Shown piece after piece: positions 5,576 through 33,717 of a DNA stretch of 48,904 bases. Both the position numbers and the translations under genes were made by a program. The first letter of the stretch is position 1; each line of letters begins with the position of its first letter. The notes below the pieces were generated by a model. That model was given only the letters and a program-made list of their open reading frames with translations, made no database searches and was not told the DNA's origin. The DNA is from a virus, in the IMG/VR virus record IMGVR_UViG_3300010375_000024, positions 1 to 48,904 of that record. One strand, written 5' to 3'.

Positions 5576-5578
5576 AAA

Positions 5579-6106: not shown

Positions 6107-6110
6107 TAGC

Positions 6111-17000: not shown

Positions 17001-18514
17001 TCAACACCACCGGGACGAATGCGCAGCCGAACTACAGCATCACCGCGCAGGTAGCGGACCTCATGACGCTCTCGGAGCATGGGGCACTCTACGGAACCTC
17101 CTACACGGTCGGGGACATCGTGGCGGTGCGGGCAACGGGCAAGATCGTCAGTGCGAATACCATCGGCGATCCGAAGTTCGTGAACGCCGGCCGGCCGACG
17201 GGATTAGGGGTCGACGATCAGATCGGAAATCATGTCCTCATCATCGCGGGGACGGGTGCGGGGCAGGAATTGCCGATCGCAAGCAACACCAACACCACGA
17301 TGACCCTCAATGGAACCTGGGGAGTACTGCCGGATGCGACCAGCGTCTGGATCGTGGTCGAGCCGGACTGGATCTTCGATTCGCCGGGCACCTCGATCAG
17401 CAACACCACCTCTTCAGCACTCCCGGATAATCCGATCGGCAGCATTACTCTCGAGAACACCGCGGGCTTAACGGTGCTAGTCCAGGTCCTGACAGAAGAC
17501 GCCTACAAGACCAGCCTCCCAGATTTCTATGCTCCCTTCCGGGAGATCTACATCGTGGGGAACGTCGGGACGATAGCAGGCGGAGTTGCGAACCCTGGCT
17601 ACGCTACGGATGTCATCGACGGCGCCAAGCACTTCACAATCGACCTGGCGAATGGCTTCCAGCATCGACTGGTACTCGACGCTAACACCGTCACGTCGGG
17701 CTGGCTTACCGGGACGACCTACGCGATCGGAGACAAGTCGTACTGGAACGATATCGTTTACGCCAGCCTGCAGGCCGGAAACATCGGCCACCAGCCGGAC
17801 ACTTCGCCGACGTACTGGGCGGTTTTCACAGGACCCCTGATTACCATCGCCGAAATCCTGCCGATCATTTACACGGGCGGAACCATCGCCACCGGCATGC
17901 CCCCGGTTACGATCTGGCTCGATCAGGATTTCCTGGGGAATTGGCCTGATCCACTTTGGAACGCCTACCTGGCGATGGTGAATCCAGGCTTCGAATCAGC
18001 GATAGGAACGGGTTGGAGCACATCGCCCGGTCCGGCCACGGTTTCGACTGCGGCATCGAGGAACGTTCTGGGCATCCAGGCGGCCTCCGACGTCACCGCA
18101 AACGACGTCATCTACCAGGACGTCGTTGGGCTCACTTCCGGACAGACCTATGTCATCGAGGCTTGGCTTTACAGTGACGGGTCGACGTCGGGATTTCTCA
18201 CGCTGAACGATTCAACGGGGGCGAACGTGGTCACCGGCTCCCCCGCCAACCCCGGGCCGACGTGGACGCGGCTCAGCCTGCTTTACGTGGCGAATGCGAC
18301 CGGCAAGGTTCGAATCCAGCTAACGCACGACGCAACCACGGGACAGATTTACTGGGATGACGTCGGCGTGTATCCGTATCAGGGCGCCTATGCCTCGGAT
18401 GTAGGCCAAGAGGGAATCTCGCTCGGGCCCAATACCCGGAACACCTACAACCTCAGTTTCCACGGCACAGTCTGGACGGTCGATTCGTTCCGCCCCAATG
18501 GGTCGCAAACCTGA
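14042..18514 (+). CDS. Tail tip hub protein: gpL-like N-terminus, gpJ-like middle, carbohydrate-binding-like end
   Basis: 1490 residues. Residues 1-250 resemble gpL/DUF2163 tip proteins and carry a Cys cluster (Cys169, 194, 197, 221, 228), then GSFGGVQW; in lambda L such cysteines hold a [4Fe-4S] cluster. From about 280, PIPEVYGTCWVNGVRV and FINEAAWAATQISYIDI ... RRPTDQVVLALLNSCNGQL follow the J-type hub (the domain-III-like part). Residues 800-1210 are beta/Fn3-like. Residues 1218-1264 match a CBM5/12-like pattern (GWLTGTTYAIGD ... QPDTSPTYW). Residues about 1312-1447 are a CBM4/9-like beta-sandwich (NPGFES ... YWDDVGVYP). Separate K and I genes are missing. Confidence 0.8.
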   Translation: MAIFPITVAQAKELAVTGRPLLLARFLMFDGTTTLYVSTNPLNAIEGGAPYAGHNYYAQLLNSSIPGLQMRSSTGIDQIPNVTLEIADANRDLYTTIEQGGGFKGALLTIVLIFAAGNTNAYSSDEWIKFTGVCSKPQFGADGKITVTATATKNLSKTFTPAGRFQSRCGWVFPSTLAQQLDGALNRSSHFFECGYCPSASGTDPVYGGAVARGNAGFTSCSLTKSDCQARGMYTIDSASRPTGSFGGVQWAPAAGLSLSKSYLTGKDVSTNSSRNDSIYNQPIPEVYGTCWVNGVRVNVVNEANTTRSEVVFSMGQVGDVGGDIDVRGVVVDDIWVPRNGHSPDNKIFRWNPANRGSVNHIGTRRGIPTSDNGYNSNGDPFGSMAMIEYVIYSQVQGSSVRVLSGGQKVQIYAGSLGSYTKTMGRGIPDADGINPSWMVMDRLTWSNYQFTDLDIDSFINEAAWAATQISYIDITGASNTHSRFKISVAFEQRRPTDQVVLALLNSCNGQLRTDIATGLRQFFIRKTLADQQPSPNLDATGHNTSNYNTAVTSMHANGTGGSGYVAFWFDESTLSAPPVELARDSSQVSNRITFAFQNEENQWSQDSISVADTDDIARVGGFGAGNEVIENWPVEGICNFDQGIRVARVRLAEDIRGNELQDTRGSRIWKVFTNYRVAHLRSGDICGFSWQQLGFAPAVGLGIPGILVRILSVEDIGQNFETASVTFRWHEDIWYTDAYGQNPPPVYSDPRKGTPNRPPYPWSGFPAIRNADDAMFNGGGYGGGFFDFSVDYANAASGDTVPIATILGNPIINAFSSLQPPLVPQLGSSTSTGGFIPAGTRIYGVTAVDASGDESPMSLFCHVTTAVGVTLGTNKIPIRTSDPATVSFNLYGGFSEPTMTFQGNTPIGGLVGGAIVKSNFFINSGSPPDVVYDHFHIRAKKVVIPGVWWKDVTSSTVVGGTTVKIKVNGLFAADAWTGYIVSKLDINTTGTNAQPNYSITAQVADLMTLSEHGALYGTSYTVGDIVAVRATGKIVSANTIGDPKFVNAGRPTGLGVDDQIGNHVLIIAGTGAGQELPIASNTNTTMTLNGTWGVLPDATSVWIVVEPDWIFDSPGTSISNTTSSALPDNPIGSITLENTAGLTVLVQVLTEDAYKTSLPDFYAPFREIYIVGNVGTIAGGVANPGYATDVIDGAKHFTIDLANGFQHRLVLDANTVTSGWLTGTTYAIGDKSYWNDIVYASLQAGNIGHQPDTSPTYWAVFTGPLITIAEILPIIYTGGTIATGMPPVTIWLDQDFLGNWPDPLWNAYLAMVNPGFESAIGTGWSTSPGPATVSTAASRNVLGIQAASDVTANDVIYQDVVGLTSGQTYVIEAWLYSDGSTSGFLTLNDSTGANVVTGSPANPGPTWTRLSLLYVANATGKVRIQLTHDATTGQIYWDDVGVYPYQGAYASDVGQEGISLGPNTRNTYNLSFHGTVWTVDSFRPNGSQT

Positions 18515-21500
18515 TGATCAAAAACATCGCTTTCCTGCTCTTGTTCTTCGTGTCGATCGCGGCTGCCCAGCAGTCGGCTACGGAACTGAAAATCATTCCG
18601 AGTTCGAACGCTGCGACCGGTACCGTTCCTGGGACCGTGAAATTCCAGGCTAAGAACGGGCTGCATTTTACGGGGCTTTCGGGCGCCGATACGATTCCCT
18701 CAAATCAGATCTTCCGGCTTCCCACACACGATATCCCGGGCGGTGGGTGCATCAATACCGACGGTGTCTACAATCTCTCCGCGGGCCCGTGTGGGGGCGC
18801 GAACTCCACCTCTGTCAGCCCCACGAATCCGATGCTGCTGTACGCACATTTCCGCGATGACGATTCGGCGAGCCTCTATTGGGATTATTCGCGTGACTAC
18901 ATCAACTTCCGGCCTTTGCGTAAGGGCGGCTGGCCGTCTCCAACTCCTATTCGAGATCCTTCCGTCTACCTCGACACCGCGACGTCCACCTGGTGGATGA
19001 TCGCGTCGCCCTCAACGGCGAGCTGCCTGGTGCAGGTCTGGAGCACCACTGACCTGGTTAATTATTCAGCGATTACGACCATCAACTTTGCGCCACTGAT
19101 CGCCGGCTGCAATGGAGTCTTCGCTCCGGAGTGGAATCTCTCGGCGGGTCCAACGGGCCAGCTCGGGATTCAGCTTCAGGTGACCAATGACGACGGCGTC
19201 ACCCAGCATCCCCAGTTCGCCGCCTATAACCCGGCAGTCAGTTTGACCGCGTACACCGCGACGGCCTACACGATCTCCGGTACGGCATCGACGCAGACCT
19301 TCGACGTTTTCCCACTGTACGACACGCCATCGACCGCGTATTATCTCGCTTATGTCGATCACCAGAACGACTCCACCTGCCCGGATAACGGGGGCGGAGT
19401 CTTGTTCTGTCAGAAGATCGCCTACGCCAAATCGACCACGCTGACGGGAACCTACACCCAGCAGACCGCGGCGAATCTGCACGCCAACTCCACGGACCAC
19501 TTCGCCTTTGGAAATCGATCGGAGGCGCCGTCCATCATGCCTCTTGTGGATTCTCTGGCGCGGTATGGCGTGGCGGATTGCCTGCGACTCTATGCCGACA
19601 CCTGGACCATCCACTTTCCGGGAGTGCGGCAATACACCTTCAAATATGTGGACACCTGCCCGGCTTCGGTTGGAACAGACCCTTTCGCGAACGTCATGCA
19701 GGCGCAAGGCTGGGGAACTCCGGTGGAAGGTGTTGCAACGGCAGCCATCAACACCGCGGCAAGTTTCGGCGCCTTCACGATCGTCCTCAAGGGCCTCGGC
19801 TCGGGAACCCTGCGGGCGGGCGACGTCTTCACGGTCGGCGGACACGCCTATACGATCCAAGCCAACGCCACGGTGAGCGGCGCGACGGCCACGGTCAGTA
19901 TCTCTCCCTACCTCCAGGGCGCCATCTTAGTAAACGACGTCGTGACCTCGATCATCGCGACACCCGTCAAGATCTCAGCATCGGAGCACGGGACGATCAT
20001 CGCGATCACCGACCAGGCGACAGCCAATATCGTCTACAAGGCGGAGGACCTGTACCGTGCAGAACGCCGGGACGAAGGGCGCCACGTGTTCGGCAGAACG
20101 CCGGAGTCTGTTGGCTTCACACCATTTCTGATTACGGCTAACTCCGCATACAACACCGGATATCTGGCCTACGATCAGCCGGCGGAAATTGGCGCGGGCG
20201 GCCCGGATCCGGGCGATGCGAACGGGTACAGCTACGCATCTTGGTCCGCGTGCGGCATCGACCCCGGAAGCTGCCCGGTACCGAATGGCGGCGATGGTAA
20301 ATGGATTCACCAGTACGGCGGCCAGCCGGGCGCGAGCGCGTCAGGATCGGACAGCCAGCTCCTCTTGAGCGTCGCTACGCCAGAGACCGGCGAGTCCTCC
20401 ATAAGTTTCGGAAACGGGACCTACAGCTTCGCAAATCCACACCCGCTCACGGCATCGACGCTGGCGAAACAGTCGCAGTGGAGCATGGGCGAGAACAATC
20501 AGAACTTCGGCCCGATGGCGGCCAGTAACGTGGCGAACAATTGGTTCTTCGTCTACAACTTTGGCCTTGGCTGCGTGGCGCAATCCACATCATGTAGCCC
20601 CTTCGGAGACCCAACCTTCACCAACTCAGGATTCGAATCTGGCCTTACGGGCTGGTTCGACGTTTCAGGCACCGCATCCGCAACGAGTGCCATTCAGGCA
20701 CGCAGTGGAACCTTTAGCCTGGCCCAGCCAACAGCGGGCGAAGAAACCTACCGGACAATCACCGGCCTGACCACGCAAACGACTTACGTCGTGACGGCGT
20801 GGGTTCGCACGACGGGCGGTACCGGCAATGGATTCCTGAAGCTCGACGACGGCTTCGCCGGCAACGTACAGACTGGCAGCGCGGTAAATCCCGGCGCTCA
20901 GTGGTATCAGGTCGGGCATCAATTCGCCACAGGCACAGGGACGTCCGTGCGCATTATCCTGTCTCGCGGATTTGGGACCGGCACGGTGTATTGGGACGAC
21001 ATCAAAGTCCACGAGGGAAGGTATCCGGGCGGTTCCTTCCCGTTCGGCATCAGCGCTTCGACGGGTGAAGTCCGCGCCAACTACGGCTACAGCTTGGGCG
21101 GCGGCGACACCACCTACCAAGGTTCAGTGGATTGGATCGGCATGGCCTCGCCGACGCCCGGCCAGTTAAACATCGGCTCCGGACGCATGGGGGACAGTGA
21201 CGCCAATTTGGTATTCGGAACCTTCAACGCAGGAAACGCAATAACCCCATCTTTTAACGACAGCTTCGCAACGGCACGCCTTGAGTACTTCGGCGGTGGG
21301 GCAGCGAACAGCACGGGGGCGGGCCTGATATTTGCGCAGCAGTACGACACCACGCTGCCGACAACCATGCGCCGGGTGGGCGGAATCTTCGGCTATAAAC
21401 AGAACGCCACTGGATCGCTTGGAGGGGGGCTTGCGTTCTATACCCAGCCATTAACGGGCGACATGGCAGAGGGCGCGAGACTAGACAAGGACGGAATCTT

Positions 21501-22332
21501 TAGGCCGCTGAACGGTTTTGGACTCGGACCGCTTGCGAGCGCGTATGCCAACATCTATGCGCCATCTGCGGGAAACATCAATCTGGGTAACGGGTCAGCA
21601 GCAAGCACACTAGCCAATCTCAATTTCGGTTCGGCCCTTTTATACAACGTGAACCAAGCCCAACCTGTAAGCAGTATTCAATCATTGCTACCTTCAGGAA
21701 ACGGTGCGCTGTTAGCGTTCAACGCGCAGAATGTCAGTGGCGTCTATAAGGCGTTAGTCACTGGGAACCGGGCCGGGTACATTCAATTTGATAACTCTGG
21801 CATGAAGATGCTGGTGTCGTCCTCCACTCAGGTTGCAGGCACCGCATTGGGAGGATTTACTCAGCCGATGGCCGTCGACACTCTCGGCGGCGTCTCGTTC
21901 GGCACGCTGGTTTCGGTTCAAATCAACAACTCTGCTCCCGCGGTCAGCACAGGAAACAAGCTCGAAATCATCGGTGTGTCTGGTGTCGATGGCGGCAACG
22001 CATTCGGTAGCGCGACCAGCACGGACGGCATCACGACGTATTGGGGATCGAAGACGGCGACAGAGGGATTCCTTGGCACCTACTCGAATCATCCGTTCGC
22101 CCTTCGCCAGAACAACGCGGACGTCCTCACCCTACCCACTGCCGGGGGCGTCGCGGTCCTCGGCAATCTGAACGTTGGCGGCAGTGGCATCTATCAGATC
22201 GGTGCCAGCAACGGCGTCAATACATCGATCACCTGCACCTTCTCCACAATCACGCTGGTAGGGGGCGGGACGATGTCGGTTTGCACGGGCATTACGACGC
22301 ACGCCTTCTCCGGCGGAATCAAAACCAACTGA
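18514..22332 (+). CDS. Tail fibre/adhesin with signal peptide, GH43-like propeller and CBM-like domain
   Basis: 1272 residues; ATG overlaps the hub stop by one base. Residues 1-18 (MIKNIAFLLLFFVSIAAAQQ) look like a Sec signal peptide with A-A-Q cleavage. Residues about 105-395 resemble a five-bladed glycosidase propeller: RDPSVY near 148, WSTTDLVNY, VFAPEWNL, and SEAPSI with Glu337 where GH43 enzymes have their acid Glu. Residues 698-835 repeat the CBM4/9-like module of the hub (NSGFESGLTGW ... YWDDIKV). The rest is fibre-like (RLDKDGIFRPLNGFGLG, NINLGNGSAAS), closing with a beta-rich C-terminus. Likely receptor binding or glycan cleavage; enzyme activity is inference. Confidence 0.7.
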   Translation: MIKNIAFLLLFFVSIAAAQQSATELKIIPSSNAATGTVPGTVKFQAKNGLHFTGLSGADTIPSNQIFRLPTHDIPGGGCINTDGVYNLSAGPCGGANSTSVSPTNPMLLYAHFRDDDSASLYWDYSRDYINFRPLRKGGWPSPTPIRDPSVYLDTATSTWWMIASPSTASCLVQVWSTTDLVNYSAITTINFAPLIAGCNGVFAPEWNLSAGPTGQLGIQLQVTNDDGVTQHPQFAAYNPAVSLTAYTATAYTISGTASTQTFDVFPLYDTPSTAYYLAYVDHQNDSTCPDNGGGVLFCQKIAYAKSTTLTGTYTQQTAANLHANSTDHFAFGNRSEAPSIMPLVDSLARYGVADCLRLYADTWTIHFPGVRQYTFKYVDTCPASVGTDPFANVMQAQGWGTPVEGVATAAINTAASFGAFTIVLKGLGSGTLRAGDVFTVGGHAYTIQANATVSGATATVSISPYLQGAILVNDVVTSIIATPVKISASEHGTIIAITDQATANIVYKAEDLYRAERRDEGRHVFGRTPESVGFTPFLITANSAYNTGYLAYDQPAEIGAGGPDPGDANGYSYASWSACGIDPGSCPVPNGGDGKWIHQYGGQPGASASGSDSQLLLSVATPETGESSISFGNGTYSFANPHPLTASTLAKQSQWSMGENNQNFGPMAASNVANNWFFVYNFGLGCVAQSTSCSPFGDPTFTNSGFESGLTGWFDVSGTASATSAIQARSGTFSLAQPTAGEETYRTITGLTTQTTYVVTAWVRTTGGTGNGFLKLDDGFAGNVQTGSAVNPGAQWYQVGHQFATGTGTSVRIILSRGFGTGTVYWDDIKVHEGRYPGGSFPFGISASTGEVRANYGYSLGGGDTTYQGSVDWIGMASPTPGQLNIGSGRMGDSDANLVFGTFNAGNAITPSFNDSFATARLEYFGGGAANSTGAGLIFAQQYDTTLPTTMRRVGGIFGYKQNATGSLGGGLAFYTQPLTGDMAEGARLDKDGIFRPLNGFGLGPLASAYANIYAPSAGNINLGNGSAASTLANLNFGSALLYNVNQAQPVSSIQSLLPSGNGALLAFNAQNVSGVYKALVTGNRAGYIQFDNSGMKMLVSSSTQVAGTALGGFTQPMAVDTLGGVSFGTLVSVQINNSAPAVSTGNKLEIIGVSGVDGGNAFGSATSTDGITTYWGSKTATEGFLGTYSNHPFALRQNNADVLTLPTAGGVAVLGNLNVGGSGIYQIGASNGVNTSITCTFSTITLVGGGTMSVCTGITTHAFSGGIKTN

Positions 22333-22334
22333 CC

Positions 22335-22832
22335 ATGAAACTCAAACTCTGTTCTCTCGCCTTACTCCTCGCCATGTCGGCGATCGCGCAGACCGCCTTC
22401 ACCATCAGCGGCTCCATCTCAGACGAAGCTCTTTCCTCACTGAACTCGGTCACGCAAACTCTCCGCGCCACGAATATCTCGGTGTCCCCCACGACCGGGG
22501 CAGCCGTGGCGCTCAACGCGACCAGCGTGACGCTCTCGAGTACCACGGGCATTGCGGTCGACATGGGCCTGTTGATCGACAACGAAGCCATGCGCATCAC
22601 CAGTATCACATCGGCAACTGTCGTGGCGGTGACGCGGGGCACGCTGGGGACGGCGAATGCCACGCATCTTATCTCCTCAACGGCTACAGTACTCGCCTAC
22701 GGTGCGCTCGCTCCGTTCATCAAAAGTCTCGTCATTGCGGACGTGCGGCAGATCATGATGCGGAATCCCGGGCCCGCGGTGACCGCAGCCCAGGCGGCCA
22801 TCACCACCGCAACAGCCGGCGCGGTTAATTAA
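22335..22832 (+). CDS. Secreted Thr/Ala-rich protein of the fibre cassette
   Basis: 165 residues from ATG 22335, 2 bp after the fibre stop; a longer in-frame reading from 22041 lies inside the fibre gene and is rejected. Residues 1-19 (MKLKLCSLALLLAMSAIAQT) form a clear signal peptide. The body is Thr/Ser/Val/Ala-rich with beta character (VALNATSVTLSSTTGIAVDM, ATVVAVTRGTLGTANATHL), similar in style to small virion-associated or adhesin proteins. No family recognised. Confidence 0.65.
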   Translation: MKLKLCSLALLLAMSAIAQTAFTISGSISDEALSSLNSVTQTLRATNISVSPTTGAAVALNATSVTLSSTTGIAVDMGLLIDNEAMRITSITSATVVAVTRGTLGTANATHLISSTATVLAYGALAPFIKSLVIADVRQIMMRNPGPAVTAAQAAITTATAGAVN

Positions 22833-22837
22833 CCAAT

Positions 22838-23227
22838 ATGAAAACTCTCTTCGCTCTCTTTCTTTTCGCAGCGTCTGCGATCGCGCAGCAGACCGCACCC
22901 AAGCCGGCACTGGTACCGGCCACCGCCCCCCTGACCATTCCCGCGGCGCGGCAGGAAGCCGTCTCCCAGGTGATGCTCAAACTTCAGCAGGCCCAGATTG
23001 AATTGCAGGGCACGCGACTCAGTGGACAGGCGGAGATTGCGAAACTCCAGACCGCGGTGCAGGAAGCAACGGACAAAGCACAGGTCAAGGTTGCCGAAGC
23101 GCAAAAGGAGTATGGGGATTTAGAAGTCGCACTCCAAAAAGAATTTCACAAGGATGGTTGCAGATTGACCATTGAGAAATCGTGGCGCTGCGCTCCTGCC
23201 GACACCTCTAAGGAGTCAGCGAAGTGA
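22838..23227 (+). CDS. Exported coiled-coil protein, candidate spanin-like lysis factor
   Basis: 129 residues. Signal peptide MKTLFALFLFAASAIAQQ, a Pro/Ala linker, then a helical region of about 75 residues (VMLKLQQAQIELQGTRL ... ALQKEFHKDG) and two Cys near the end. It overlaps the next gene by GTGA and is followed by membrane genes and the endolysin, so a periplasmic lysis role (spanin-like) is possible. No lipobox Cys follows the signal peptide, so it is not a classical outer-membrane spanin. Confidence 0.6.
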   Translation: MKTLFALFLFAASAIAQQTAPKPALVPATAPLTIPAARQEAVSQVMLKLQQAQIELQGTRLSGQAEIAKLQTAVQEATDKAQVKVAEAQKEYGDLEVALQKEFHKDGCRLTIEKSWRCAPADTSKESAK

Positions 23228-23592
23228 ACTGGCTCAAATCTCTCTTCTCCTCCATCGGGCGCTTCTTCTCGTCCGACAAAGGCAAGCAAACCATCTCGAT
23301 TATCGAAAAGCTGGTGCAGATTGCCATACCGATCGTCCTCGCGATCGCGAAGGCCACCGGCAACTCAGGAGCGGCAGCCAGCATCTCATCGGTCCAGAAC
23401 GTGTACGAAACGTACGGCGTACCGCTGACACAAACCCTGGTCGACGGGGATAAAGCGGCGATCGGCAACGCGCTTCAAAATCTTGCCGTCGTCGTGCTGC
23501 AAAAGCAACTCCCTCCGGACGCTGCCTCGGTGGCCACCAACGTCCTCAACACCGCGGTGTCGCTCGCATACACGGCGACGAAGGTCTCTTAA
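23224..23592 (+). CDS. Small membrane-active protein, possible holin component
   Basis: 122 residues starting at GTG 23224 within the previous stop. N-terminus MNWLKSLFSSIGRFFSS is amphipathic, followed by a hydrophobic segment (LVQIAIPIVLAIAKATG, about residues 30-46) and an Ala/Val-rich helical C-terminus. Size, hydrophobicity and place ahead of the endolysin fit a holin or lysis regulator, but only one clear membrane segment is seen. Family not recognised. Confidence 0.5.
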   Translation: MNWLKSLFSSIGRFFSSDKGKQTISIIEKLVQIAIPIVLAIAKATGNSGAAASISSVQNVYETYGVPLTQTLVDGDKAAIGNALQNLAVVVLQKQLPPDAASVATNVLNTAVSLAYTATKVS

Positions 23593-23619
23593 CTCTCAAA
23601 TCGAAAAGGAAACACAGAC

Positions 23620-23778
23620 ATGCTTATTTTGTTGATCTTTCTCATCCTGATTTTTGGCGGAGGCGGATATTACTCAGGATTTTCAACCCCGCTTGGTGGA
23701 ATGGGCGGAGGCCTCGGGCTGATCCTGCTCATCGTGGTTCTGTTCATGCTCTTTGGCGGTGGACGGCTGCACCTGTGA
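23620..23778 (+). CDS. 52-residue two-segment membrane protein, holin candidate
   Basis: Starts at ATG 23620 after AAAAGGAAA. Sequence is two hydrophobic stretches, LILLIFLILIFGGGG and GLGLILLIVVLFMLFGGG, separated by a Gly-rich turn (TPLGGMGG), with a short basic end (RLHL). This resembles DUF3309-type tiny membrane proteins. In a lysis cassette it may be the holin or a holin partner. It overlaps the next gene by GTGA. Confidence 0.6.
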   Translation: MLILLIFLILIFGGGGYYSGFSTPLGGMGGGLGLILLIVVLFMLFGGGRLHL

Positions 23779-24044
23779 CCTTCATCGTTGATCCCGCCGT
23801 CTTCACGAAGCTCGAAAAGCAACTCGCCGACTCCCACCAGGTAACGATGGCGCCGGGTCCGACGCTGGCAAACGGCGATGAGTCCGGCACCCTCACTCAC
23901 GAGAAAGTCCAGGCCCAATACACCTTCACACCAGCCGACAGCAAGCTCATCGTGGTCGTGACCAAGGGCGGCAACTGGATGGTGAACCTCGCAGTTAGCT
24001 CCAGAATCAAAGACGCCATCAAGGCAGCGAGCGCTCCGGCGTAA
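23775..24044 (+). CDS. Small unknown protein in the lysis region
   Basis: 89 residues from GTG 23775, coupled to the holin-candidate stop. Mixed alpha/beta with no signal peptide; DPAVFTKLEKQLADSHQVTM and LIVVVTKGGNWMVNLAVSS are the most ordered-looking parts. Phage genes of this kind often follow the holin, but I cannot name a family. Confidence 0.55.
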   Translation: MTFIVDPAVFTKLEKQLADSHQVTMAPGPTLANGDESGTLTHEKVQAQYTFTPADSKLIVVVTKGGNWMVNLAVSSRIKDAIKAASAPA

Positions 24045-24180
24045 AGCAGAGCATCACGCCCAGCGCGGTGATGACGATTCCGGACCCTAGGTGCCATGCG
24101 AATCGCGATCGCCCGATCGTAAACGCCACCACGATCTTCCCCAGCCCCAGAACAATCTGAACCGCAAAAAGCCATCTCAT
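24019..24180 (-). CDS. Possible 53-residue membrane protein on the opposite strand
   Basis: An ORF from ATG 24180 to TGA 24019 encodes MRWLFAVQIVLGLGKIVVAF ... GSGIVITALGVMLCF, two clean membrane segments with a basic loop between them. It occupies nearly all of the 162-bp gap before the endolysin and overlaps the upstream gene end by 26 bp. The ribosome site is weak (GGGTGG touching the start). Two well-formed hydrophobic segments in an otherwise empty gap are suggestive, not decisive; an antiholin or holin role would be speculation. Confidence 0.35.
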   Translation of the reverse strand: MRWLFAVQIVLGLGKIVVAFTIGRSRFAWHLGSGIVITALGVMLCFTPERSLP

Positions 24181-24206
24181 CCACCCGACAATTTAAAGGA
24201 AACAAT

Positions 24207-24665
24207 ATGAACCCGCGCCAGGCGTCGCCGGCGGCTTCCAATTTCGTCAAGAAAGCGGAGTCCTGCGTTCTATCGGCATACCGGGATTCCGTCCGCTCCA
24301 AACAGTGGCCTATTGGAGTCCCCACAATCGGCTGGGGGCACACAAAGGGCGTCCTCATGGGCGACGTGATCACGCAAGAGCGCGCCGATGCTCTGCTGCT
24401 CGAGGACATGCGGGACGCAGTCGAGTGCGTCGATCGCAAGGTAGGGCCGGAGACGACACAGAACCAATTCGACGCGATGGTGAGCCTCGTCTTCAATATC
24501 GGGTGCGGGGCCTTCACGATGTCGACCCTCCTGCGATTATTCAACGCCGGCCAGCCGGCAGCCGCGGCGAGGGAGTTCGTGCGCTGGATCTACGCGGGCA
24601 ACGTTGCCCTCCCTGGTTTGCTCACCCGTCGGCAAGCTGAGCGGGATCTGTTCCTCAAGGTTTAA
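24207..24665 (+). CDS. Endolysin, glycoside hydrolase 24 lysozyme
   Basis: 152 residues, full length for the T4/P21-type lysozyme family that cleaves the MurNAc-GlcNAc bond of peptidoglycan. The catalytic set is Glu18 (FVKKAESC), Asp27 (SAYRDS) and Thr40 in PTIGWGHT; the Glu-Asp spacing of 9 is typical, while the Asp-Thr loop is longer than usual. C-terminal [18 protein letters not shown] and [16 protein letters not shown] are family motifs. No signal peptide, so it needs a holin. SD AAAGGAAA precedes the start. Confidence 0.95.
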
Positions 24666-24670
24666 GCCAA

Positions 24671-26068
24671 ATGTACAAACAATTTCTTATCGTCGCTTTC
24701 CTGGGTGCCGCCTCGATCTACGCCCAACCGAGCCTCACCACCGTATCGAGCACGGTCACGAACGCGGACGGCACGCTCTTCACAGGCAAAATCACCATCG
24801 TCGCCCAGCCCATCCAATCGGGAACGGTGATCGTGAGATCGGCGCCGATCCTTGCACCCATTCTGAACGGCGTCATGACGGTGCAGCTCGCGGCGAACGA
24901 TACTGTCTATCCGACAGGCACGCCATACTACGTCGTCTATCAGCCCACCCGCGGCACACCCTATTCCGAAAACTGGGGCGTTCCCCAAGGCGGACCGTAC
25001 ACGATCCCCCAGGTCCTGAAGCCGGGCGCCCAGGTGGCAGCCTCGATCAACACGTTATTGAACGGCATCATCCCGCCGACAAACGGTCAAGGCAACAACG
25101 GGGACATGTTCCTCAATACCGCCACCCAATGCTTGTACGGCCCGAAGTCTCATGCAGCCTGGCCGGGCACCTGCGTTTCCATCAAGGGCGATACCGGATT
25201 GACGGGTTTGACTGGCAACACCGGACCTCCCGTGAACTTCCGCGGAGCCTGGCTCATTGGGACGGCCTACGTCACCGGCGACGCGGTCTCATTCGGAGGC
25301 TCGAGCTATATCGCAACCAGCAATAACACTGGATTGCAGCCGGATACGAACCCGGGATCGTGGGGGCTCCTCGCGCAACTCGGGAACACGGGGGCGCAGG
25401 GCATTCAGGGTATTCAGGGCATCCAGGGCGTTCAGGGAACCATCGGCGCCACCGGGTCTACCGGAGCAACCGGGCCGACCGGGAGCATGGGTCCCCAAGG
25501 AATTCAGGGAATCATCGGGCTGACCGGCTCCACGGGTTCTACGGGGCCAACCGGCAGCACGGGCCCAACGGGTGCCCAAGGAATTCAGGGCATCACGGGG
25601 GTCACCGGCTCCACGGGCCCAACCGGACCAACCGGGAGCACTGGCCCAACCGGACCAACCGGAAGTACTGGCGCGACTGGCGCTGCTTCCACGGTTCCAG
25701 GACCAGCGGGACCCACTCCTTCAGGCGCCGGCAACCTCTCACTTATGACACCGGATGGCACGAGCGGTGCGGCGGTGCTGCGTGCGCTTCGACCGGCCGA
25801 CCTCGCGCCAGCCGGGCTCCTCGGCAACAGCACCACAGGCAACGCTTCCACCTCGACCGTAGCCGCGCATGCCGGTACCGCGGATCTGGCTTCTGTTGCT
25901 GTTCTCGCCACCTCCTTCGTGTGCACCGGCTGCACCATCGGCGCGCCCATCTGCTGGAACGGCTCCGGACCAACGACGTCCTGCGGCGGCGCTGGCACTC
26001 TTTTTGATTCTTTCTCGGGGCTGTTCGACAGCGTTTCCGACCCTCTTTTCGACTCTTCTACCAACTGA
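24671..26068 (+). CDS. Collagen-like fibre protein with signal peptide
   Basis: 465 residues. Signal peptide [20 protein letters not shown]; beta-rich N-terminal domain to about residue 170; a CBM5/12-like segment at residues 189-237 ([17 protein letters not shown] ... QPDTNPGSW); then about 100 residues of Gly-X-Y collagen-like repeats (GAQGIQG and GPTGSTG types, residues about 238-339). A Ser/Ala-rich C-terminus with four Cys ([11 protein letters not shown] ... TSCGG) could cross-link a trimer. Phage collagen-like domains form triple-helical fibre shafts. It follows the endolysin by 5 bp. Confidence 0.75.
25382..25690 (+). repeat. Collagen-type GXY coding repeat
   Basis: A 9-bp-rich tandem pattern (GGCATTCAG and ACGGGC/ACCGGG units) encodes uninterrupted Gly-X-Y triplets, mostly GIQ, GPT, GST and GAT. 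Such DNA readily changes length by slippage, so shaft length may vary between relatives. Thr-rich triplets without hydroxyproline are typical of bacterial and phage collagens. Confidence 0.8.
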
Positions 26069-26077
26069 GATTTATCC

Positions 26078-28231
26078 ATGAAAACCCTACGATTTCTGCT
26101 TTTGGCGGTAGCTTGCCTTTCGCCGCTCGGGGCCCAAGTACCTACCGTCGGAAATGACACTCACGCCAATGTGAGGACGGCCATTAACGCGGCAACCACC
26201 TACCTCGACGCAAAGCAATTGAAAGGGGCCGGCGCTCCTTCCGCCACCTGCAGCGCGGGAACAAACCTCGGCGTGATCTACGTCCGGACAGATGCCGGCG
26301 CGGCAAGCTCGAGCTTTTACATCTGCGCGAAGACTGGCGTCAGCACTTATACATGGGAGGGGCCCTACTCCTACATCACCGGCGCTCCCTCGACCTGGCC
26401 GTCATTCGCAACGGTCGCGACGACGGGCGCCTACTCGGACCTCAGCGGCAGGCCCACGCTGTTCTATCAGACCCTGCAGGCGAACGGCACAGCGCAGACA
26501 CAGCGGCCCATCGTCAACTGGATTAACGGCACAAATGCGACGGTCGTCTGTGTCGATAACTCCGGTGCGACACGGACAGACTGCACGCTCAGCGCAACCG
26601 CGGGAGCTGGCGGCTACGCGACGGTTGCCTCTGCTGGAACTCCGCTAACGGCGAGAACTACGCTCAATTTCGGCGCCGAATTCACGGCCGTCGATAACTC
26701 CGGGGCGGCCCGCACGGACGTCTCCGTAAACTCGATCGCGAGCACTAAGATTACCGGACTCCCAACCTTTCCCGCGGGAACGATCCTAGGCACAACCGAT
26801 ACGCAGACCGTTACGAATAAGACCGTCAATGGAGTATCGCCCGCGACCTTCGGTTTCCTCGATCCCACCTCGAGCGTGCAGACCCAGCTCAACACGAAAG
26901 CGCCATCGAGCACGGCTTTAACCGGCACACCCACCAATCACGGCGTAGCAATCGGTGGAGCGGGGCAAGCAAACACCTACACGGCAGTCGGCAGCGCGAC
27001 TCAAGTGCTGACTTCGAACGGTCCAGGCGTAGACCCGACGTTCCAGGCAGCGGCGGGCGGAGGAGGTGGTGGTTCTGGGACCGGCTACATAGGGACCTTG
27101 GCGACGCAGACCGCAAACTACACGACCTCCTCGACGGACACAGGCAAGCTGATTCCCATGAGTGTATCGGCGGGGGGAACGCTCACACTGCCGGCAGTGG
27201 TTCCGACGGGCGTGCGGTGGTGGGTGCAGAATTTAAACGCGGTGGCGCTGACCCTATCCGGTAATGGCAACACCCTCAACGGCGGGGGAAATATCACGCT
27301 CGGCCTCGGGCAGATGGTAGAGATTTTGTCGAAAGGGGGAACCGATTACGCGGTGACCACGCCCGTAATAGGCGGCGGATTCGGGATCGTGCCGGCATAC
27401 TTAGCGACTGGCACCAGGCTCGAAATCGATACGGCAGTGGTTCCGACCCTTCCCGGTTTGCAAACGGGTTCGAGCAATCCCCAGATCTGCACTTCGAGTT
27501 CGGCCAGCGGAACGGTTTACACGGCAACCTGCAACACCGCTTTAGCCGGCTACGACGATAAGCAAACCTTGTTTTGGAAAGTCGACATCACCAACAGCGG
27601 CACCACGCCAACGCTCAATATTGATGGCCGCGGCGCCAAAACCATGGTGAAGCAGGACGGAACAGCGCTAACAGCAGCAGACCTCAAAGTAGCCATCTAT
27701 CGCATCTGGTACGACTTGGCGGCCGACAAGATTCGCGTCGTCGAAGCAGGCCTCGGTGGAGGAGGGGGCGGTGCCACGAACGTCCCAACGATCCCTAAAT
27801 GCACCAACCCCGGGACATCAACGAGCGCAACCTCTCTGACGACCCTCGATAGCGTCTCTCTGCCCAGTGTGAGCGTGGGAGATTTGATCACTGTCCATGC
27901 TGTATGGACCAACACAGGAGGGGCATCAAGCGACGTGGAACTTCTCTTTGGGTCGACCGATTTGCCCCTATTGGCAGTTTGCTGCACCTCATTCACTACG
28001 GCCCCTAATTCAATCACAGCAAATATCAATGTCACGGGTTCTAGCGCGCAAATCTGGGACTCGATATTTAACAACGGTGGCGCTGGAGCCGCCGCGACTG
28101 GCGGGTACAGCGGAACAGCTACTCAGTCAATCAGCGGCGCGGTGACGGTAGGCTTGCGGGCCAGGGTTGCAACCACCGGAACTGTGACTCTAAATCACTG
28201 GTGCGTAGAATACATGCCTCACCAACCGTAA
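26078..28231 (+). CDS. Fibre-type protein with signal peptide
   Basis: 717 residues. Signal peptide MKTLRFLLLAVACLSPLGAQ, then VGNDTHANVRTAINAATTYL. The middle contains fibre-like TLGTTDTQTVTNKTVNGVSP and LDPTSSVQTQLNTKAPSS stretches and a Gly-rich hinge (AAAGGGGGGSGTGYIGTL). The later part is beta-rich (NADGRGAK-like TLNIDGRGAKTMVKQDG), ending in a C-terminal domain of about 150 residues with paired Cys. Likely a tail fibre or virion-surface adhesin; no enzymatic motif seen. Confidence 0.65.
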   Translation: MKTLRFLLLAVACLSPLGAQVPTVGNDTHANVRTAINAATTYLDAKQLKGAGAPSATCSAGTNLGVIYVRTDAGAASSSFYICAKTGVSTYTWEGPYSYITGAPSTWPSFATVATTGAYSDLSGRPTLFYQTLQANGTAQTQRPIVNWINGTNATVVCVDNSGATRTDCTLSATAGAGGYATVASAGTPLTARTTLNFGAEFTAVDNSGAARTDVSVNSIASTKITGLPTFPAGTILGTTDTQTVTNKTVNGVSPATFGFLDPTSSVQTQLNTKAPSSTALTGTPTNHGVAIGGAGQANTYTAVGSATQVLTSNGPGVDPTFQAAAGGGGGGSGTGYIGTLATQTANYTTSSTDTGKLIPMSVSAGGTLTLPAVVPTGVRWWVQNLNAVALTLSGNGNTLNGGGNITLGLGQMVEILSKGGTDYAVTTPVIGGGFGIVPAYLATGTRLEIDTAVVPTLPGLQTGSSNPQICTSSSASGTVYTATCNTALAGYDDKQTLFWKVDITNSGTTPTLNIDGRGAKTMVKQDGTALTAADLKVAIYRIWYDLAADKIRVVEAGLGGGGGGATNVPTIPKCTNPGTSTSATSLTTLDSVSLPSVSVGDLITVHAVWTNTGGASSDVELLFGSTDLPLLAVCCTSFTTAPNSITANINVTGSSAQIWDSIFNNGGAGAAATGGYSGTATQSISGAVTVGLRARVATTGTVTLNHWCVEYMPHQP

Positions 28232-28244
28232 AGCGGCGACCCAC

Positions 28245-31200
28245 ATGAAAACCTTATTTCTCTTGCTCCTGGCAGCCTTCTCTGCGTCCAGTGCCGCGTT
28301 CGGGGCCTGTGGAGGCACGACCTACAATATTGGTTCAGGGCAGACGTACGCCACGTACGCTCTTGCCTTTGCAGCACTACAGGCAGATTGCCCGACAACG
28401 GGCACAGTATTTACGGCTTCCAATACCCTGCATTTCACGGCAGGCACCTACAACGTGCAGGTCAACGCTGCCTCGGGGTATGCTTTCGGAACCACCATCA
28501 CCGCCCGCTTGATTCTCGCCTTCGACTCTGGCGCAATCGTAGATGGCCAGAACACCCGCCAATACGCGGTGCAAGGTAACCAGGATCATCTAACGATATC
28601 TGGCGGTGAGTTCAAGGGCGGGACTCTCGGCGGTATCGGCGTTACCGGGAATGATTTTATCGGGTTCAACATGAACTCGCACGATTCCGCAGGGCATTGC
28701 TTCATGCAGAGTAGTTCCGACGGACTGTTGGTGCATGACTCCGTTTTTCATGATTGCGCGAACACCGGATTCTTTGTGGCGAGCCCTACCTTAACGGGAA
28801 CGTGCGAGATCTACAATATAACCTCACATGACAACGGCGATTATGGTGCCGCTGTCTGGCAACCAAGCTGCGTCATCCATGACAGTCTTCTGTACCACAA
28901 CGTCAATCGGGCCGGCCTTGATATCACCGGCGCTAATGTGGTGGCCTACAACAACATCTCGCACCACAACCTGTCCGGGACGGAAGTCAACGCAGGTGGC
29001 GGAATTTTAGGAGGTGTAATCCTCCGTAACAACTTCTTTCTGTTGAACACAGAGCACAACATTGACATCGGGAATGGTGCCAGTGCTGAGATTTACAACA
29101 ACACGTTGTTTAATGCCACCCAGACCTCCGGGGGAAACGAGATCCTTGTCGTGACCCCATGTCCGGCCGGGTGCGCTGCACCCACCATAATCAAAAACAA
29201 CCTCATTATCGGCGGGTCGAACGAGACGCAGTACGGACTGATGCTGCTGGACCACTCTGCCGGAATCGTGCTGGACAATAACGACCTTTTCTTTGTTGAC
29301 ACCGGAGGAGGGATTCCGACCAACTTTGCCACATGGGGAGTCACCCCCGCAACCAGCTTTGCCGGGTGGAAAACTTTATCCGGTCAGGACGCGAACAGCA
29401 TCAGCGCCAATCCTGGCTTCACGAATGCGGGCGGCACCTCGGCTGTAGATTATCAGTGGTCGAGCGGTAGCCCAGCGCAAAATGCTGGAGCAACCATCTC
29501 GGGGTTCACCATCGATTATTTCGGTACGACGCGCACCGCTCCGTGGGACATAGGGGCGTTCGAATATGCGGGAGCACCGCCACCCCCACCTCCACCCGCT
29601 GGCACGCTTACTGTCTGCGCCAGTGGTTGCGATTACACGACGGTCCAGGCAGCGGGCAATGCGGCAGTTCCTGGCAACACCATCGTCATCGAGGCGGGCT
29701 ATAACAACGCGGGTCCGCTCGTTCTGCCGGATGGAACCCATGGACTCACCTTCAAATCGTCGCGGATCGACGCCTATCCACGGAACACCAGGATCGTTCG
29801 CAATAGTCCTGCACTGGCAAAGATCGAGCAGGTCACGCTTGGTAACGGCATGGCGTTCGCTTTACTGCCGTCTGCGATGTCCACGCTAACCACCAATGCG
29901 CCACACGGTTTCACCATAGGCGAGAAGGTGACTGTAGCGGCCCAAAGGTTCTCAGCTTACTACTGCGGTAGCTTGTGCGCTCCTCCATATAACATGCCGT
30001 ACAACAACCCGTTCTCTACCGCGGGCACCGTCAATGTGAGCGGAACCGCGGTGACGTGGCTCTCGGGTCCCACTTTCACGTCTCAGTGGATCGGTGGCTA
30101 CATGACGATTGCGGGGGCGCCTTGCAATCCATGCCAGATCACGGCGGTTAATAGCTCGACCTCCGTCACACTCTCTGCTAGTGGCGGTTTATTGTCTGGC
30201 GCATCCTTCACTATGGGATTTGATATCGCCGTATGCGAAGCCAGCAGGGTGGGGTTTATCAATATTCGCTTCGATACCCATCTCGCAAACGGGATGATCG
30301 TTTACTTCGCCGGACGCACGCTACCTCCCCCACTGCAACTGAACACGCCTTACTATGTGATTAACTTTGCCACGGGGTCGTCCTGGCCAATAAACGCTGA
30401 CAAGTTTCAGGTGTCTGCTACCCTGGGCGGTTCGCCAATTATCCTAGGTCCCAATTGGGCGAACACTCCGATTAGTGGAATCCCGTATGATCCAACAGGT
30501 CAGGATTTTACGGTGGTAATTCCGCCACTCCCTGCCATGGACGGGAGCGATATGTATGTGGTGTCGGCTCCTACCACAACGAGCGTGCAACTATCTCTAA
30601 CCCTCGGAGGGTCCCCTGTCACCTTCGCGCAAGCAGTGAACGGCTACAACGGCGGCGGGTTCAGCAATGGATTCCGAATCTTTGGCGCGAACCCCGTCTA
30701 CGACATGGTCTTCGACGGAATTGAGCTATTTCCCCCTGACGATAATCAGGTTTATTACGTCTTCTTTGCTCAGGGTGGTGTCAATAGCAACTTCGGTGAG
30801 CACTTCGGAATTAACCTGCTACGCTGCTGGGCGCACGGCCACGATGACCAAGAGGACTTTCCAATGTCCATCATCAATATCACTGGGAGAAACCTGGAGG
30901 TTGGGTGGAGCGTTGTTGAGAACAGCTACAGCGTATACAACGACACCCAGAACATTGGCATCACTTCGACAAGCAACGTCTACATTCACGACAATGAATT
31001 AAAGGGCGCCACAGAGAACATCTTCAGCGGTGGCAACTACCCCTGGTTTGCGGGAGTCAGGAACACAGAGGGTTTACGCGTTGAAAGAAACTGGCTGTGG
31101 AAGCCTTTAAAGTATTTTCATGGCCTATGGCCGACGTTGGTTGATAGCACGCATTTTACTATTGAACAACTTGAGAGCGGTACTGATTGCTCTACAATAG

Positions 31201-33188
31201 ACGCATCTAACCTGACGGCACAGTGTTATTGGTGGGAGAGTAACGAATCTGCGCCTGACTATAGTCCGGCCAACCCAACGATCTCTCGACACGTTTGGAC
31301 ACAGAATCCGACGAATTCAACCTTCACGGTCACGGTTGGCGCGCCGACTGGAGGATGTCCAAATTACTTGACTGCCCAAGGTCTGGGACAGTTGGGGTGC
31401 GGCTTCATCTATGGCCTCGGCGGCGTCATTCACATGGATTATTCGTTTCTTGGCACCGTAACATGTCCAGGTTCGGTAGTCTGCACCTTCGTCGCTACCC
31501 CGTCCTTCCCAACAACCTCCAGTCGCCTGGGAATCGCAATGATGGACACAGGGGGATTTCAGGGGGATTTCTATTTTGAGATGCGCCACGTGTACCAGAA
31601 GAATCACATCGAGTCGAAGTACGGCGACTACTGGAATATTGTAGGCAATGTATTCGATCGCCAGACAAATTGTGACAATGGAACGTTCTGCCAGAGTGAA
31701 GGGATTCACTGGACCGTTTCGGGTAATGGTAGCTACCAGGGTGACCCGATTAACTCGGCAACCTCTAGCAGTTACAGCACTGCTCGGCATAATATCTTTC
31801 GCGGACTCGCTGCCGGTATCGGTGGAACCGGCGAAACCTACGCAGTCCAAATCGGGGGGAATATCGCCTCTTGGGAGTGGGCTGGCTTCGGAAAGTCAGT
31901 ACAGAACACCATAGAGAACAATCTCTTCATCGATATCGGATCGTCCGAGTACACCAGATTCGGGCGGGACGGTTACATGGTGCTGCAATCGAATGCAGGC
32001 TACCCCTCTACCCAGCAGCCTACCCTTGGTTCGTGGATAGTTAAACACAACACCGGAGTCGATCTGAGGCACTTCGTGGTTCCGAGCTTTGCATTCGGCA
32101 CGACCTATGACTCAAACATCGCCGTGCCCTATAGATTTGGCGCGGAGAATCCGCTCTCCGGTACTACGGGAGCTTGTCCGGGTGGCGGTTGCCCATTTGC
32201 GCACGTTGCAGCGACAACACACCTCGGCGTAATTGGCGATATCGGAAACGGGTGGCTTCCGGATTTTGGTGGGGGCTACGTACAATCGTTCAATAGCGGC
32301 CTGATTGACAGCACGGCTGTGCTGAACAATAACATATTAATGAATCGTGCAGGGTACTTTTACGGGTCTACGGTTCCCACAAATTATCCAGCTTGCCCCA
32401 CCGGCACGATGGGCAAATGCACGTACCTCGTCCAATACACGGACACCATGCCGGGCGGGTTGACCCCCGATCCGTCCCTCTTATTCCAGACGTTTAACGA
32501 GCGCAACAACGCGCTACCGCCGACTGGTTCGAATTACAGGGCAAGCAATCTTCGGCTGGCCGCGGGCATGGCCGCTACCTATCCCGCCGCAGACGCACGG
32601 GATATCGGAGCGGACATCGATGAGATCGAAGCGATCACCGGGGCAAAGGGAGTCGACGTAGAAAAGGGAGTGGCGCAGTTCTCGGTTCGTTCCGCCCGCC
32701 AAATTTCGCCGGGCTCAACGACGGCCGCGATCTCGTACCTCTCGGACGGCCAGGTCTGCTCGATCAAGCTTTGGCCCAATACGTCCTACAGCGGATCGCC
32801 GACGGTCAGCATCACCGATAGCGGCGCTGCTGTGATTGGTGGCAGGGTGTCAGTTGGAGTAACGGGCCTTTCCGCTTCAACAAATTACCAGGGCAAGAGA
32901 ATTTGCGGCACTCAAGGAAGTGCGTCCGCGCATTACGATATTCTCTCCTTCACAACCACCCCAGCGACGCCGGTGCAGGTGCTGCAATTCACACCGCCGG
33001 CCGGCGTGGCGTCCTGCGAGATCGAGCATGGCTCGACATCATCGCTCGGATCCACCACTTCGCCGGTTAGTGTTTCTGCAGGAACCTGCTCTATCGCGCT
33101 GCCGGCGTCCGCGTTCTATCGGGTTGCGTACCTGGACAGCGGCTCAACGGTGATCCGCCGCGGCCAAATCCAGCAGCGAGGACTATAG
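28245..33188 (+). CDS. Very large parallel beta-helix adhesin/tailspike-like protein with signal peptide
   Basis: 1647 residues. Signal peptide MKTLFLLLLAAFSASSAAFG. Two right-handed beta-helix regions are visible: residues about 25-440 (repeats such as HNISHH, RNNFFLLN, AEIYNNTLFN) and about 450-1400, opened by a second CASGCDYTTVQAAGNAAVPG entry after a PPPPPPP linker near residue 444. A C-terminal beta-sandwich/Fn3-like region (about 1490-1647) ends in IRRGQIQQRGL. The fold is that of tailspike depolymerases and pectate-lyase-like adhesins. No catalytic residues can be named. Its 3' end overlaps the convergent PEP-CTERM gene by 98 bp. Confidence 0.7.
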   Translation: MKTLFLLLLAAFSASSAAFGACGGTTYNIGSGQTYATYALAFAALQADCPTTGTVFTASNTLHFTAGTYNVQVNAASGYAFGTTITARLILAFDSGAIVDGQNTRQYAVQGNQDHLTISGGEFKGGTLGGIGVTGNDFIGFNMNSHDSAGHCFMQSSSDGLLVHDSVFHDCANTGFFVASPTLTGTCEIYNITSHDNGDYGAAVWQPSCVIHDSLLYHNVNRAGLDITGANVVAYNNISHHNLSGTEVNAGGGILGGVILRNNFFLLNTEHNIDIGNGASAEIYNNTLFNATQTSGGNEILVVTPCPAGCAAPTIIKNNLIIGGSNETQYGLMLLDHSAGIVLDNNDLFFVDTGGGIPTNFATWGVTPATSFAGWKTLSGQDANSISANPGFTNAGGTSAVDYQWSSGSPAQNAGATISGFTIDYFGTTRTAPWDIGAFEYAGAPPPPPPPAGTLTVCASGCDYTTVQAAGNAAVPGNTIVIEAGYNNAGPLVLPDGTHGLTFKSSRIDAYPRNTRIVRNSPALAKIEQVTLGNGMAFALLPSAMSTLTTNAPHGFTIGEKVTVAAQRFSAYYCGSLCAPPYNMPYNNPFSTAGTVNVSGTAVTWLSGPTFTSQWIGGYMTIAGAPCNPCQITAVNSSTSVTLSASGGLLSGASFTMGFDIAVCEASRVGFINIRFDTHLANGMIVYFAGRTLPPPLQLNTPYYVINFATGSSWPINADKFQVSATLGGSPIILGPNWANTPISGIPYDPTGQDFTVVIPPLPAMDGSDMYVVSAPTTTSVQLSLTLGGSPVTFAQAVNGYNGGGFSNGFRIFGANPVYDMVFDGIELFPPDDNQVYYVFFAQGGVNSNFGEHFGINLLRCWAHGHDDQEDFPMSIINITGRNLEVGWSVVENSYSVYNDTQNIGITSTSNVYIHDNELKGATENIFSGGNYPWFAGVRNTEGLRVERNWLWKPLKYFHGLWPTLVDSTHFTIEQLESGTDCSTIDASNLTAQCYWWESNESAPDYSPANPTISRHVWTQNPTNSTFTVTVGAPTGGCPNYLTAQGLGQLGCGFIYGLGGVIHMDYSFLGTVTCPGSVVCTFVATPSFPTTSSRLGIAMMDTGGFQGDFYFEMRHVYQKNHIESKYGDYWNIVGNVFDRQTNCDNGTFCQSEGIHWTVSGNGSYQGDPINSATSSSYSTARHNIFRGLAAGIGGTGETYAVQIGGNIASWEWAGFGKSVQNTIENNLFIDIGSSEYTRFGRDGYMVLQSNAGYPSTQQPTLGSWIVKHNTGVDLRHFVVPSFAFGTTYDSNIAVPYRFGAENPLSGTTGACPGGGCPFAHVAATTHLGVIGDIGNGWLPDFGGGYVQSFNSGLIDSTAVLNNNILMNRAGYFYGSTVPTNYPACPTGTMGKCTYLVQYTDTMPGGLTPDPSLLFQTFNERNNALPPTGSNYRASNLRLAAGMAATYPAADARDIGADIDEIEAITGAKGVDVEKGVAQFSVRSARQISPGSTTAAISYLSDGQVCSIKLWPNTSYSGSPTVSITDSGAAVIGGRVSVGVTGLSASTNYQGKRICGTQGSASAHYDILSFTTTPATPVQVLQFTPPAGVASCEIEHGSTSSLGSTTSPVSVSAGTCSIALPASAFYRVAYLDSGSTVIRRGQIQQRGL

Positions 33189-33693: not shown

Positions 33694-33700
33694 TTGTCCG

Positions 33701-33717
33701 GTACCTCCAGTACCGTC
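33701..33717 (-). promoter_or_regulatory. Hairpin holding the ribosome site of the PEP-CTERM gene
   Basis: CGGTAC (33701-33706) and GTACCG (33712-33717) form a perfect 6-bp stem. On the minus strand the loop and adjoining stem base contain GGAGG, about 10 nt before the start codon at 33693. The Shine-Dalgarno sequence is therefore partly held in a hairpin, which could limit translation. Confidence 0.45.

What the first reader, a model, noticed from the sequence alone, without database searches (positions are those of the whole stretch)
18514..33188. Fibre and lysis-region proteins carry Sec signal peptides
Six proteins (starts 18514, 22335, 22838, 24671, 26078, 28245) begin with textbook signal peptides of 18-20 residues, most ending in A-Q. 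Virion fibres normally assemble in the cytoplasm and lack them. The coiled-coil protein at 22838 may be a lysis factor, but a 1.3-kDa-scale run of large fibre, collagen and beta-helix proteins is not expected to be exported. Options include export of adhesins that coat the host or block superinfection, an extracellular matrix or depolymerase role, or membrane-linked fibre assembly.
Basis: partly seen in the sequence, partly recalled or inferred. Interest (0 to 1): 0.75.

Follow-up and report, generated by a model that had tools for sequence, protein, structure and literature searches.

The report
Acidobacterial phage fibres carry export signals
The fibre- and spike-like proteins of this soil phage, and of unrelated phages that infect the same bacterial phylum, begin with signals for export across the inner membrane and carry paired cysteines as exported proteins do, which suggests that the phage sends its attachment proteins out of the cytoplasm before the virus particle is finished.

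Summary
All six proteins start with textbook Sec/SPase-I signal peptides (five cut at A|Q), at ATGs 0-14 bases from the upstream stop, while no head or tail gene of the window passes the same rule. The window is a lambda-like phage, inferred to infect Bryobacterales (Acidobacteriota). The feature recurs in relatives sharing its tail-tip gene and in unrelated plaque-forming Acidobacteriota isolates (Tunturi 1, 2 and 4), including genes annotated 'tail spike', 'tail fiber' and 'virion structural protein'. It is rare elsewhere: 1 of 68 collagen fibres and 2 of 326 large ORFs of other phages. An independent test supports export: mature parts hold an even number of cysteines (27 even, 3 odd) against 30:29 in signal-less proteins of the same phages. 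One spike gains four cysteines relative to its signal-less homologues; a Tunturi spike keeps a signal peptide after its N-terminus was rebuilt. Modules are shared with the virion tail tip. Best reading: receptor-binding spikes and fibres are Sec-exported, oxidised in the periplasm, and meet virions at lysis. Export is strongly supported; virion attachment is inferred. The main rival is secreted non-virion depolymerases or adhesins. Virion proteomics of Tunturi 1 or 4 would decide.

The parts
14042..18514 (+). tail-tip (host-specificity-like) protein, 1490 aa, no signal peptide; C-terminal CBM_4_9 module shared with the exported protein 18514
   Evidence: relatives; CBM_4_9; blastp 38% over 134 aa to W18514, E 5e-18
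18514..22332 (+). large fibre/spike-type protein 1272 aa with Sec signal peptide (1-18); N-terminal domain shared with L090 14835-19739, weak GH32/43-like region, CBM_4_9 module; 14 Cys in mature part
18514..18567 (+). signal peptide MIKNIAFLLLFFVSIAAA
22335..22832 (+). 165-aa small fibre-like protein with signal peptide (1-18); matches tail-protein PHROGs; no Cys in mature part
22838..23227 (+). 129-aa coiled-coil protein with signal peptide (1-16), 2 Cys; candidate periplasmic lysis (spanin-like) factor
   Evidence: position beside holin-like gene and lysozyme; role inferred
23224..23592 (+). 122-aa protein with one hydrophobic segment, holin-like
   Evidence: hydropathy only
24207..24665 (+). 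phage lysozyme (endolysin), no signal peptide
   Evidence: Pfam PF00959 E 9e-41
24671..26068 (+). 465-aa collagen-like tail fibre with signal peptide (1-18), 6 Cys; N-terminal ~110 aa shared with an exported family of other Bryobacterales phages
   Evidence: phrog_5073 tail fiber E 4e-41, PF01391, alignment A3, Foldseek best weak hit Bxb1 tail tip
26078..28231 (+). 717-aa fibre with signal peptide (1-19), 10 Cys; module shared with exported fibre L167 17800-20853
28245..33188 (+). 1647-aa right-handed beta-helix spike-type protein with signal peptide (1-20), 32 Cys; module shared with Tunturi_1 gp17
   Evidence: PF13229 E 4e-10

Best explanation
The phage makes its receptor-binding fibres and spikes as Sec precursors. 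The signal peptides take them across the inner membrane of the (inferred) Bryobacterales host; signal peptidase I cuts, mostly at A|Q; the mature chains fold in the oxidising periplasm, where paired cysteines form disulfides; they wait there until the holin/lysozyme genes of the same cluster lyse the cell. Virions assembled in the cytoplasm then meet the fibres, which dock through a conserved N-terminal domain of roughly 100 residues. Shown here: the signal peptides, their recurrence, the cysteine parity, shared modules with the tail tip, conserved N-termini with replaced C-termini. Inferred: actual export, disulfides, docking to virions, and its timing at lysis.
For: Signal peptides at six gene starts of one block, none in head/tail genes. 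Recurrence in relatives with the same tip gene: L082, L083/L124, L090/L125, L159, L162, L163, L165, L167. Recurrence in unrelated plaque-forming Acidobacteriota phages: Tunturi_1 gp12, gp13, gp14 (tail spike), gp16, gp17 (virion structural protein), the same in Tunturi_2 (gp13 annotated tail fiber), and Tunturi_4 gp113 (tail protein) and gp114 (virion structural protein). Rare in other phages: 1/68 collagen fibres, 2/326 large ORFs. Even cysteine counts in mature SP proteins 27:3 against 30:29 in SP-less proteins of the same records, a recognised mark of exported, disulfide-bonded proteins (PMC7678975). The same spike domain occurs without SP in L089 and L154, partly fused to the tip in L089, and with SP plus four extra Cys in L125. 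Tunturi_4 gp114 and Tunturi_1 gp17 share 47% over 751 columns, yet the SP sits before a different N-terminal architecture in each. Conserved SP-plus-N-terminal domain with replaced remainder: W18514/L090, T1gp12/L210, W24671/L159 family. W18514 shares a CBM module with the virion tip.
Against: No proteomics: no exported protein has been shown on a virion; 'tail spike' and 'virion structural protein' in the Tunturi records are Phold/PHROG predictions (PMC11924767). No precedent found for tailed-phage spikes assembled outside the cytoplasm. Tunturi_3 and the first 50 kb of Tunturi_5 have annotated fibres without SP, so Acidobacteriota phages do not need this. How large fibres would reach virions in useful numbers after lysis is unexplained. 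The W24671 N-terminal domain is also a host-encoded secreted family, so host-gene capture is possible.
Confidence: 0.5

Rival explanations
1. Secreted non-virion proteins: the SP proteins are phage-encoded depolymerases/adhesins (pectin-lyase-like beta-helices, GH-like propeller, CBMs, LamG lectin) that act in the periplasm or after lysis on extracellular polysaccharide, or block superinfection, and never join the virion.
For: Carbohydrate-type domains: Beta_helix PF13229, CBM_4_9, weak GH32N in 18514, Laminin_G_3 in L167, 'pectin lyase' annotation in Tunturi_2 gp14. Proteins are exported and lie beside the lysis genes. Host genomes keep a secreted homologue of the 24671 N-terminal domain.
Against: Tail-fibre architecture and position behind the tail tip; module shared with the virion tip; SP-less homologues in the same place in sister phages and partly fused to a tip; in Tunturi_1 nearly all large spike-type genes are SP-bearing; conserved N-terminus with variable C-terminus, typical of virion-attached receptor-binding proteins.
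Confidence: 0.32
2. Dual localisation: part of the product is exported and part is made or kept in the cytoplasm (internal start or slow Sec targeting) and only the cytoplasmic part enters virions.
For: Sister phages carry SP-less homologues, presumably assembled in the cytoplasm.
Against: No in-frame ATG in the first 68 residues of the four large proteins; the even-cysteine bias indicates selection on the oxidised form.
Confidence: 0.1
3. The signal peptides are passengers of host-gene capture with no function in the phage.
For: The host order carries a secreted family homologous to the 24671 N-terminal domain in 228 of 257 genomes.
Against: Several non-homologous protein families carry SPs in at least three unrelated phage lineages; SP kept after N-terminal rebuilding; cysteine parity.
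Confidence: 0.05

Closest known systems
Tunturi 1, 2 and 4 phages of Tunturiibacter (PMC11924767; PP887698, PP885685, PP885687)
   Same: Fibre/spike block of SP-bearing, even-cysteine proteins; a beta-helix module shared with 28245.
   Different: Other phage lineages (podovirus, siphovirus) and another host order; the paper's main text does not mention signal peptides.
Conventional tail fibres and tailspikes of tailed phages
   Same: Collagen, beta-helix and CBM modules, position behind the tail tip, conserved N-terminus with variable C-terminus.
   Different: Conventional ones have no signal peptide: 1 of 68 collagen fibres in IMG/VR passed, and phage DGR target proteins were reported to lack signal peptides (PMC6199706).
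Filamentous phage coat proteins pIII/pVIII (from general knowledge)
   Same: Virion proteins made as Sec precursors.
   Different: They are membrane-inserted and the virion is extruded through the envelope; here a lambda-like head and tail with a lysis cassette is encoded.
SAR endolysins and spanins (export signals in lysis proteins; discussed in PMC3556154)
   Same: Phage proteins that use Sec.
   Different: These are lysis factors; only 22838 could belong here.
Bryobacterales secreted family 'SP + LTTIQDVLYKADGTRFNG' (found here)
   Same: Homologous to the N-terminal domain of 24671; exported; mostly even Cys.
   Different: Chromosomal single-copy gene, sometimes beside serS, not in a phage.

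Membership tests
Sec / signal peptidase I exported proteins | positively charged n-region, hydrophobic h-region, -3/-1 small residues | tested here: met
   six of six pass own strict rule; SignalP not available
Sec / signal peptidase I exported proteins | even-cysteine bias of the mature part | tested here: met
   27 even: 3 odd against 30:29 in SP-less controls; sequences are partly related, so p-values are approximate
Sec / signal peptidase I exported proteins | cleavage and translocation in cells | not testable with these tools
   needs reporter fusions or N-terminal proteomics
Lipoproteins (SPase II) | lipobox [LVI][ASTVI][GAS]C at the cleavage site | tested here: not met
   no Cys at the cleavage site in five of six; 28245 (AAFGAC) has only a degenerate match
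Tat substrates | twin-arginine motif in the n-region | tested here: not met
   no RR in any of the six N-termini
Tailed-phage fibre/spike (receptor-binding protein) | fibre/spike domain architecture, gene position behind the tip | tested here: met
   phrog_5073 for 24671, PF13229 for 28245, shared CBM with tip for 18514
Tailed-phage fibre/spike (receptor-binding protein) | presence in the virion | not testable with these tools
   no proteomics exists for the window phage; Tunturi annotations are predictions
Tailed-phage fibre/spike (receptor-binding protein) | made and assembled in the cytoplasm (no export signal) | tested here: not met
   signal peptides present
Surface-anchored adhesin | outer-membrane anchor, autotransporter barrel or sorting signal | tested here: not met
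   no anchor in Pfam hits or by eye; a full beta-barrel predictor was not run
Spanin (for 22838) | inner-membrane TM plus partner outer-membrane lipoprotein | tested here: inconclusive
   SP plus coiled coil, 2 Cys; no partner o-spanin identified

The most novel reading that the evidence does not exclude
Several unrelated lineages of Acidobacteriota phages complete their virions outside the cytoplasm: disulfide-bonded, Sec-exported spikes and fibres wait in the periplasm and are fitted to the tails only at lysis.
Probability: 0.42. Interest if true: 0.88.

Novelty: new variant of a known kind. Interest (0 to 1): 0.74.

Why it matters
Fibres and spikes of tailed phages are taught to fold and attach in the cytoplasm. 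If phages of a whole host phylum export them, it adds an assembly route, explains disulfide-rich spikes, and could decide how these phages cope with soil or with host polysaccharide. It is testable at once because isolates that plaque on cultured Acidobacteriota exist (Tunturi 1, 2, 4). If instead they are secreted non-virion enzymes, many genes annotated as virion spikes in soil phages are misannotated.

Tried and rejected
Collagen query for relatives: returned unrelated collagen fibres; used only as a control set. N-terminal 150 aa of 24671 in viral contigs, the L090 fibre in viral contigs and tblastn of the window fibres in phage records: no useful relatives. PDB sequence searches: only weak ribosomal-protein matches to 18514, judged chance. 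Structure of the 18514 propeller-like region: pLDDT 33, unusable. Fold of the 24671 N-terminal domain: pLDDT 65; Foldseek top hit Bxb1 tail tip E 1.6e-3, followed by many transthyretin-like beta sandwiches, so taken as weak. Enrichment of SP in crude downstream ORFs against upstream ORFs is significant but modest (14/65 vs 9/126) because false ORFs dilute both. Search for a link between the order-wide tail element and the host SP family: no clear co-occurrence. Literature: no paper found on SP-bearing spikes; only open-licence PMC was searchable. The remainder of Tunturi_5 (50-309 kb) was not examined.

Full report
What was checked. The window is one 48.9-kb IMG/VR record with a lambda-like head and tail: portal PF05136, S49 protease, capsid E PF03864, tape measure, a DUF2460-like protein and a 1490-aa tip protein. 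No near match exists among 50,697 phage records. The six flagged genes are real and begin with typical Sec signal peptides. Starts are tightly coupled to the upstream stop codons, and the four large genes have no in-frame ATG in their first 68 residues apart from the start. A strict n/h/c rule of my own (SignalP was not available) passes all six and none of the head or tail genes; shuffles of the six pass at 2.2%.

Host. Relatives of the tip protein were found by scan in only two of about 85,000 genomes, both Bryobacterales MAGs of Acidobacteriota, and then with a profile in 200 of 257 genomes of that order. The N-terminal domain of 24671 belongs to a family present in 228 of 257 of them. A Bryobacterales host is therefore inferred, not proven.

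Recurrence in related phages. In records that share the tip gene, large proteins after the tip again carry signal peptides: L090 14835-19739 (1634 aa), L125 2130-5795 (1221 aa) and 5786-6547, L124 735-4445 (1236 aa) and 4446-5948, L082 19139-21469, L167 17105, 17800 (1017 aa) and 20858, L165 14518, and a 265-282-aa family in L159, L162, L163 and L087. Others (L089, L154/L155) have an SP-less set.

Recurrence in unrelated isolates. The Tunturi phages are plaque-forming isolates on Tunturiibacter, also Acidobacteriota (PMC11924767). Tunturi_1 has SP proteins gp12, 13, 14, 16 and 17 just before its endolysin, one annotated tail spike and one virion structural protein; Tunturi_2 keeps them. A relative of Tunturi_1, L210, has SP proteins at the same place. 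Tunturi_4, a siphovirus, has gp113 and gp114. The paper's main text does not mention signal peptides. Tunturi_3, and Tunturi_5 in its first 50 kb, have no SP on annotated fibres.

Background. Of 68 collagen-like fibre ORFs from other IMG/VR phages one passes, a membrane-type protein. Of 326 ORFs of 350 aa or more in the same set two pass.

Cysteines. [quoted passage not shown] Counting complete SP proteins with at least one Cys in the mature part gives 27 even and 3 odd; SP-less proteins upstream of the tip give 30 even and 29 odd (binomial p 4e-6, Fisher p 3e-4, approximate because some sequences are related). Pairs often sit in short hairpins such as TCTGSPCGG or VCVDNSGATRTDCTLS. This is largely independent of the signal-peptide prediction and supports real export and oxidation.

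Natural experiments. The spike domain 'EVRxTxGSDTNGGGF..GTDYSQQNA' stands without SP in L089 and L154, part of it is fused to the tip protein of L089, and it carries an SP plus four extra cysteines in L125. Tunturi_4 gp114 matches Tunturi_1 gp17 from residue 390 onward at 47% identity, yet each protein has a signal peptide at its own, differently built, N-terminus. In three families the SP and the first ~100 residues are conserved while the rest is replaced (W18514/L090, T1gp12/L210, W24671/L159), the pattern of receptor-binding proteins with a conserved attachment domain. W18514 shares a CBM module with the virion tip (38% over 134 aa, E 5e-18).

Reading. Export of these proteins is strongly supported by sequence (my estimate 0.88). 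That they are virion fibres or spikes is likely but inferred; hence 0.5 for the full chain: Sec export, oxidative folding in the periplasm, release at lysis, docking to virions. Free-standing attachment of spikes to finished particles is plausible from general knowledge of P22 tailspikes and T4 long fibres, which can be added to particles in vitro (own knowledge, not tested here). The main rival, secreted polysaccharide-active proteins that never join the virion, is not excluded (0.32). Surface display as an adhesin is less likely because no outer-membrane anchor was found. Dual localisation and passive host-gene capture are less likely still.

Limits. The signal-peptide rule and ORF caller are home-made; annotation of Tunturi spikes is predictive; the host of the window phage is inferred; 22335 and 22838 are small proteins whose fibre or lysis roles are uncertain; one structural model failed and the other is of modest confidence.

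Noticed in passing
L093-L122, L128-L142 (Bryobacterales genomes): Relatives of the window's tail-tip protein occur in 200 of 257 Bryobacterales genomes, mostly one copy of very constant length (~1300-1320 aa), followed in most of the loci read by a 920-990-aa protein ('LDKLRPDRDLQCYF'); L136 also has a possible portal gene nearby. This looks like a vertically kept, order-wide phage-tail element (domesticated prophage, tailocin or gene transfer agent).
   Followed up: partly
L168-L205: A secreted protein family (signal peptide + 'LTTIQDVLYKADGTRFNG') sits as about one copy in 228 of 257 Bryobacterales genomes, beside serS in three of the eight loci read, unknown function; it is homologous to the N-terminal domain of window 24671.
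   Followed up: partly
window 33091-33759 (-): Small exported protein with an NPEP...hydrophobic...R tail that resembles a PEP-CTERM sorting signal, next to the fibre block (no Pfam hit).
   Followed up: no
window 40637-41197 (-): 186-aa protein with a clear signal peptide (MKILLLLAALAVPAYSADC), no family match.
   Followed up: no
L127 11537-12019: In a Bryobacterales prophage region, a signal-peptide protein with a porin-like look (160 aa) lies just after a lysozyme-like gene; possible envelope-modifying or exclusion protein.
   Followed up: no
window 1826-1878: The S49 protease/scaffold ORF overlaps the end of the portal ORF by 53 bases (mechanical ORF start; the true start may be further in).
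   Followed up: no
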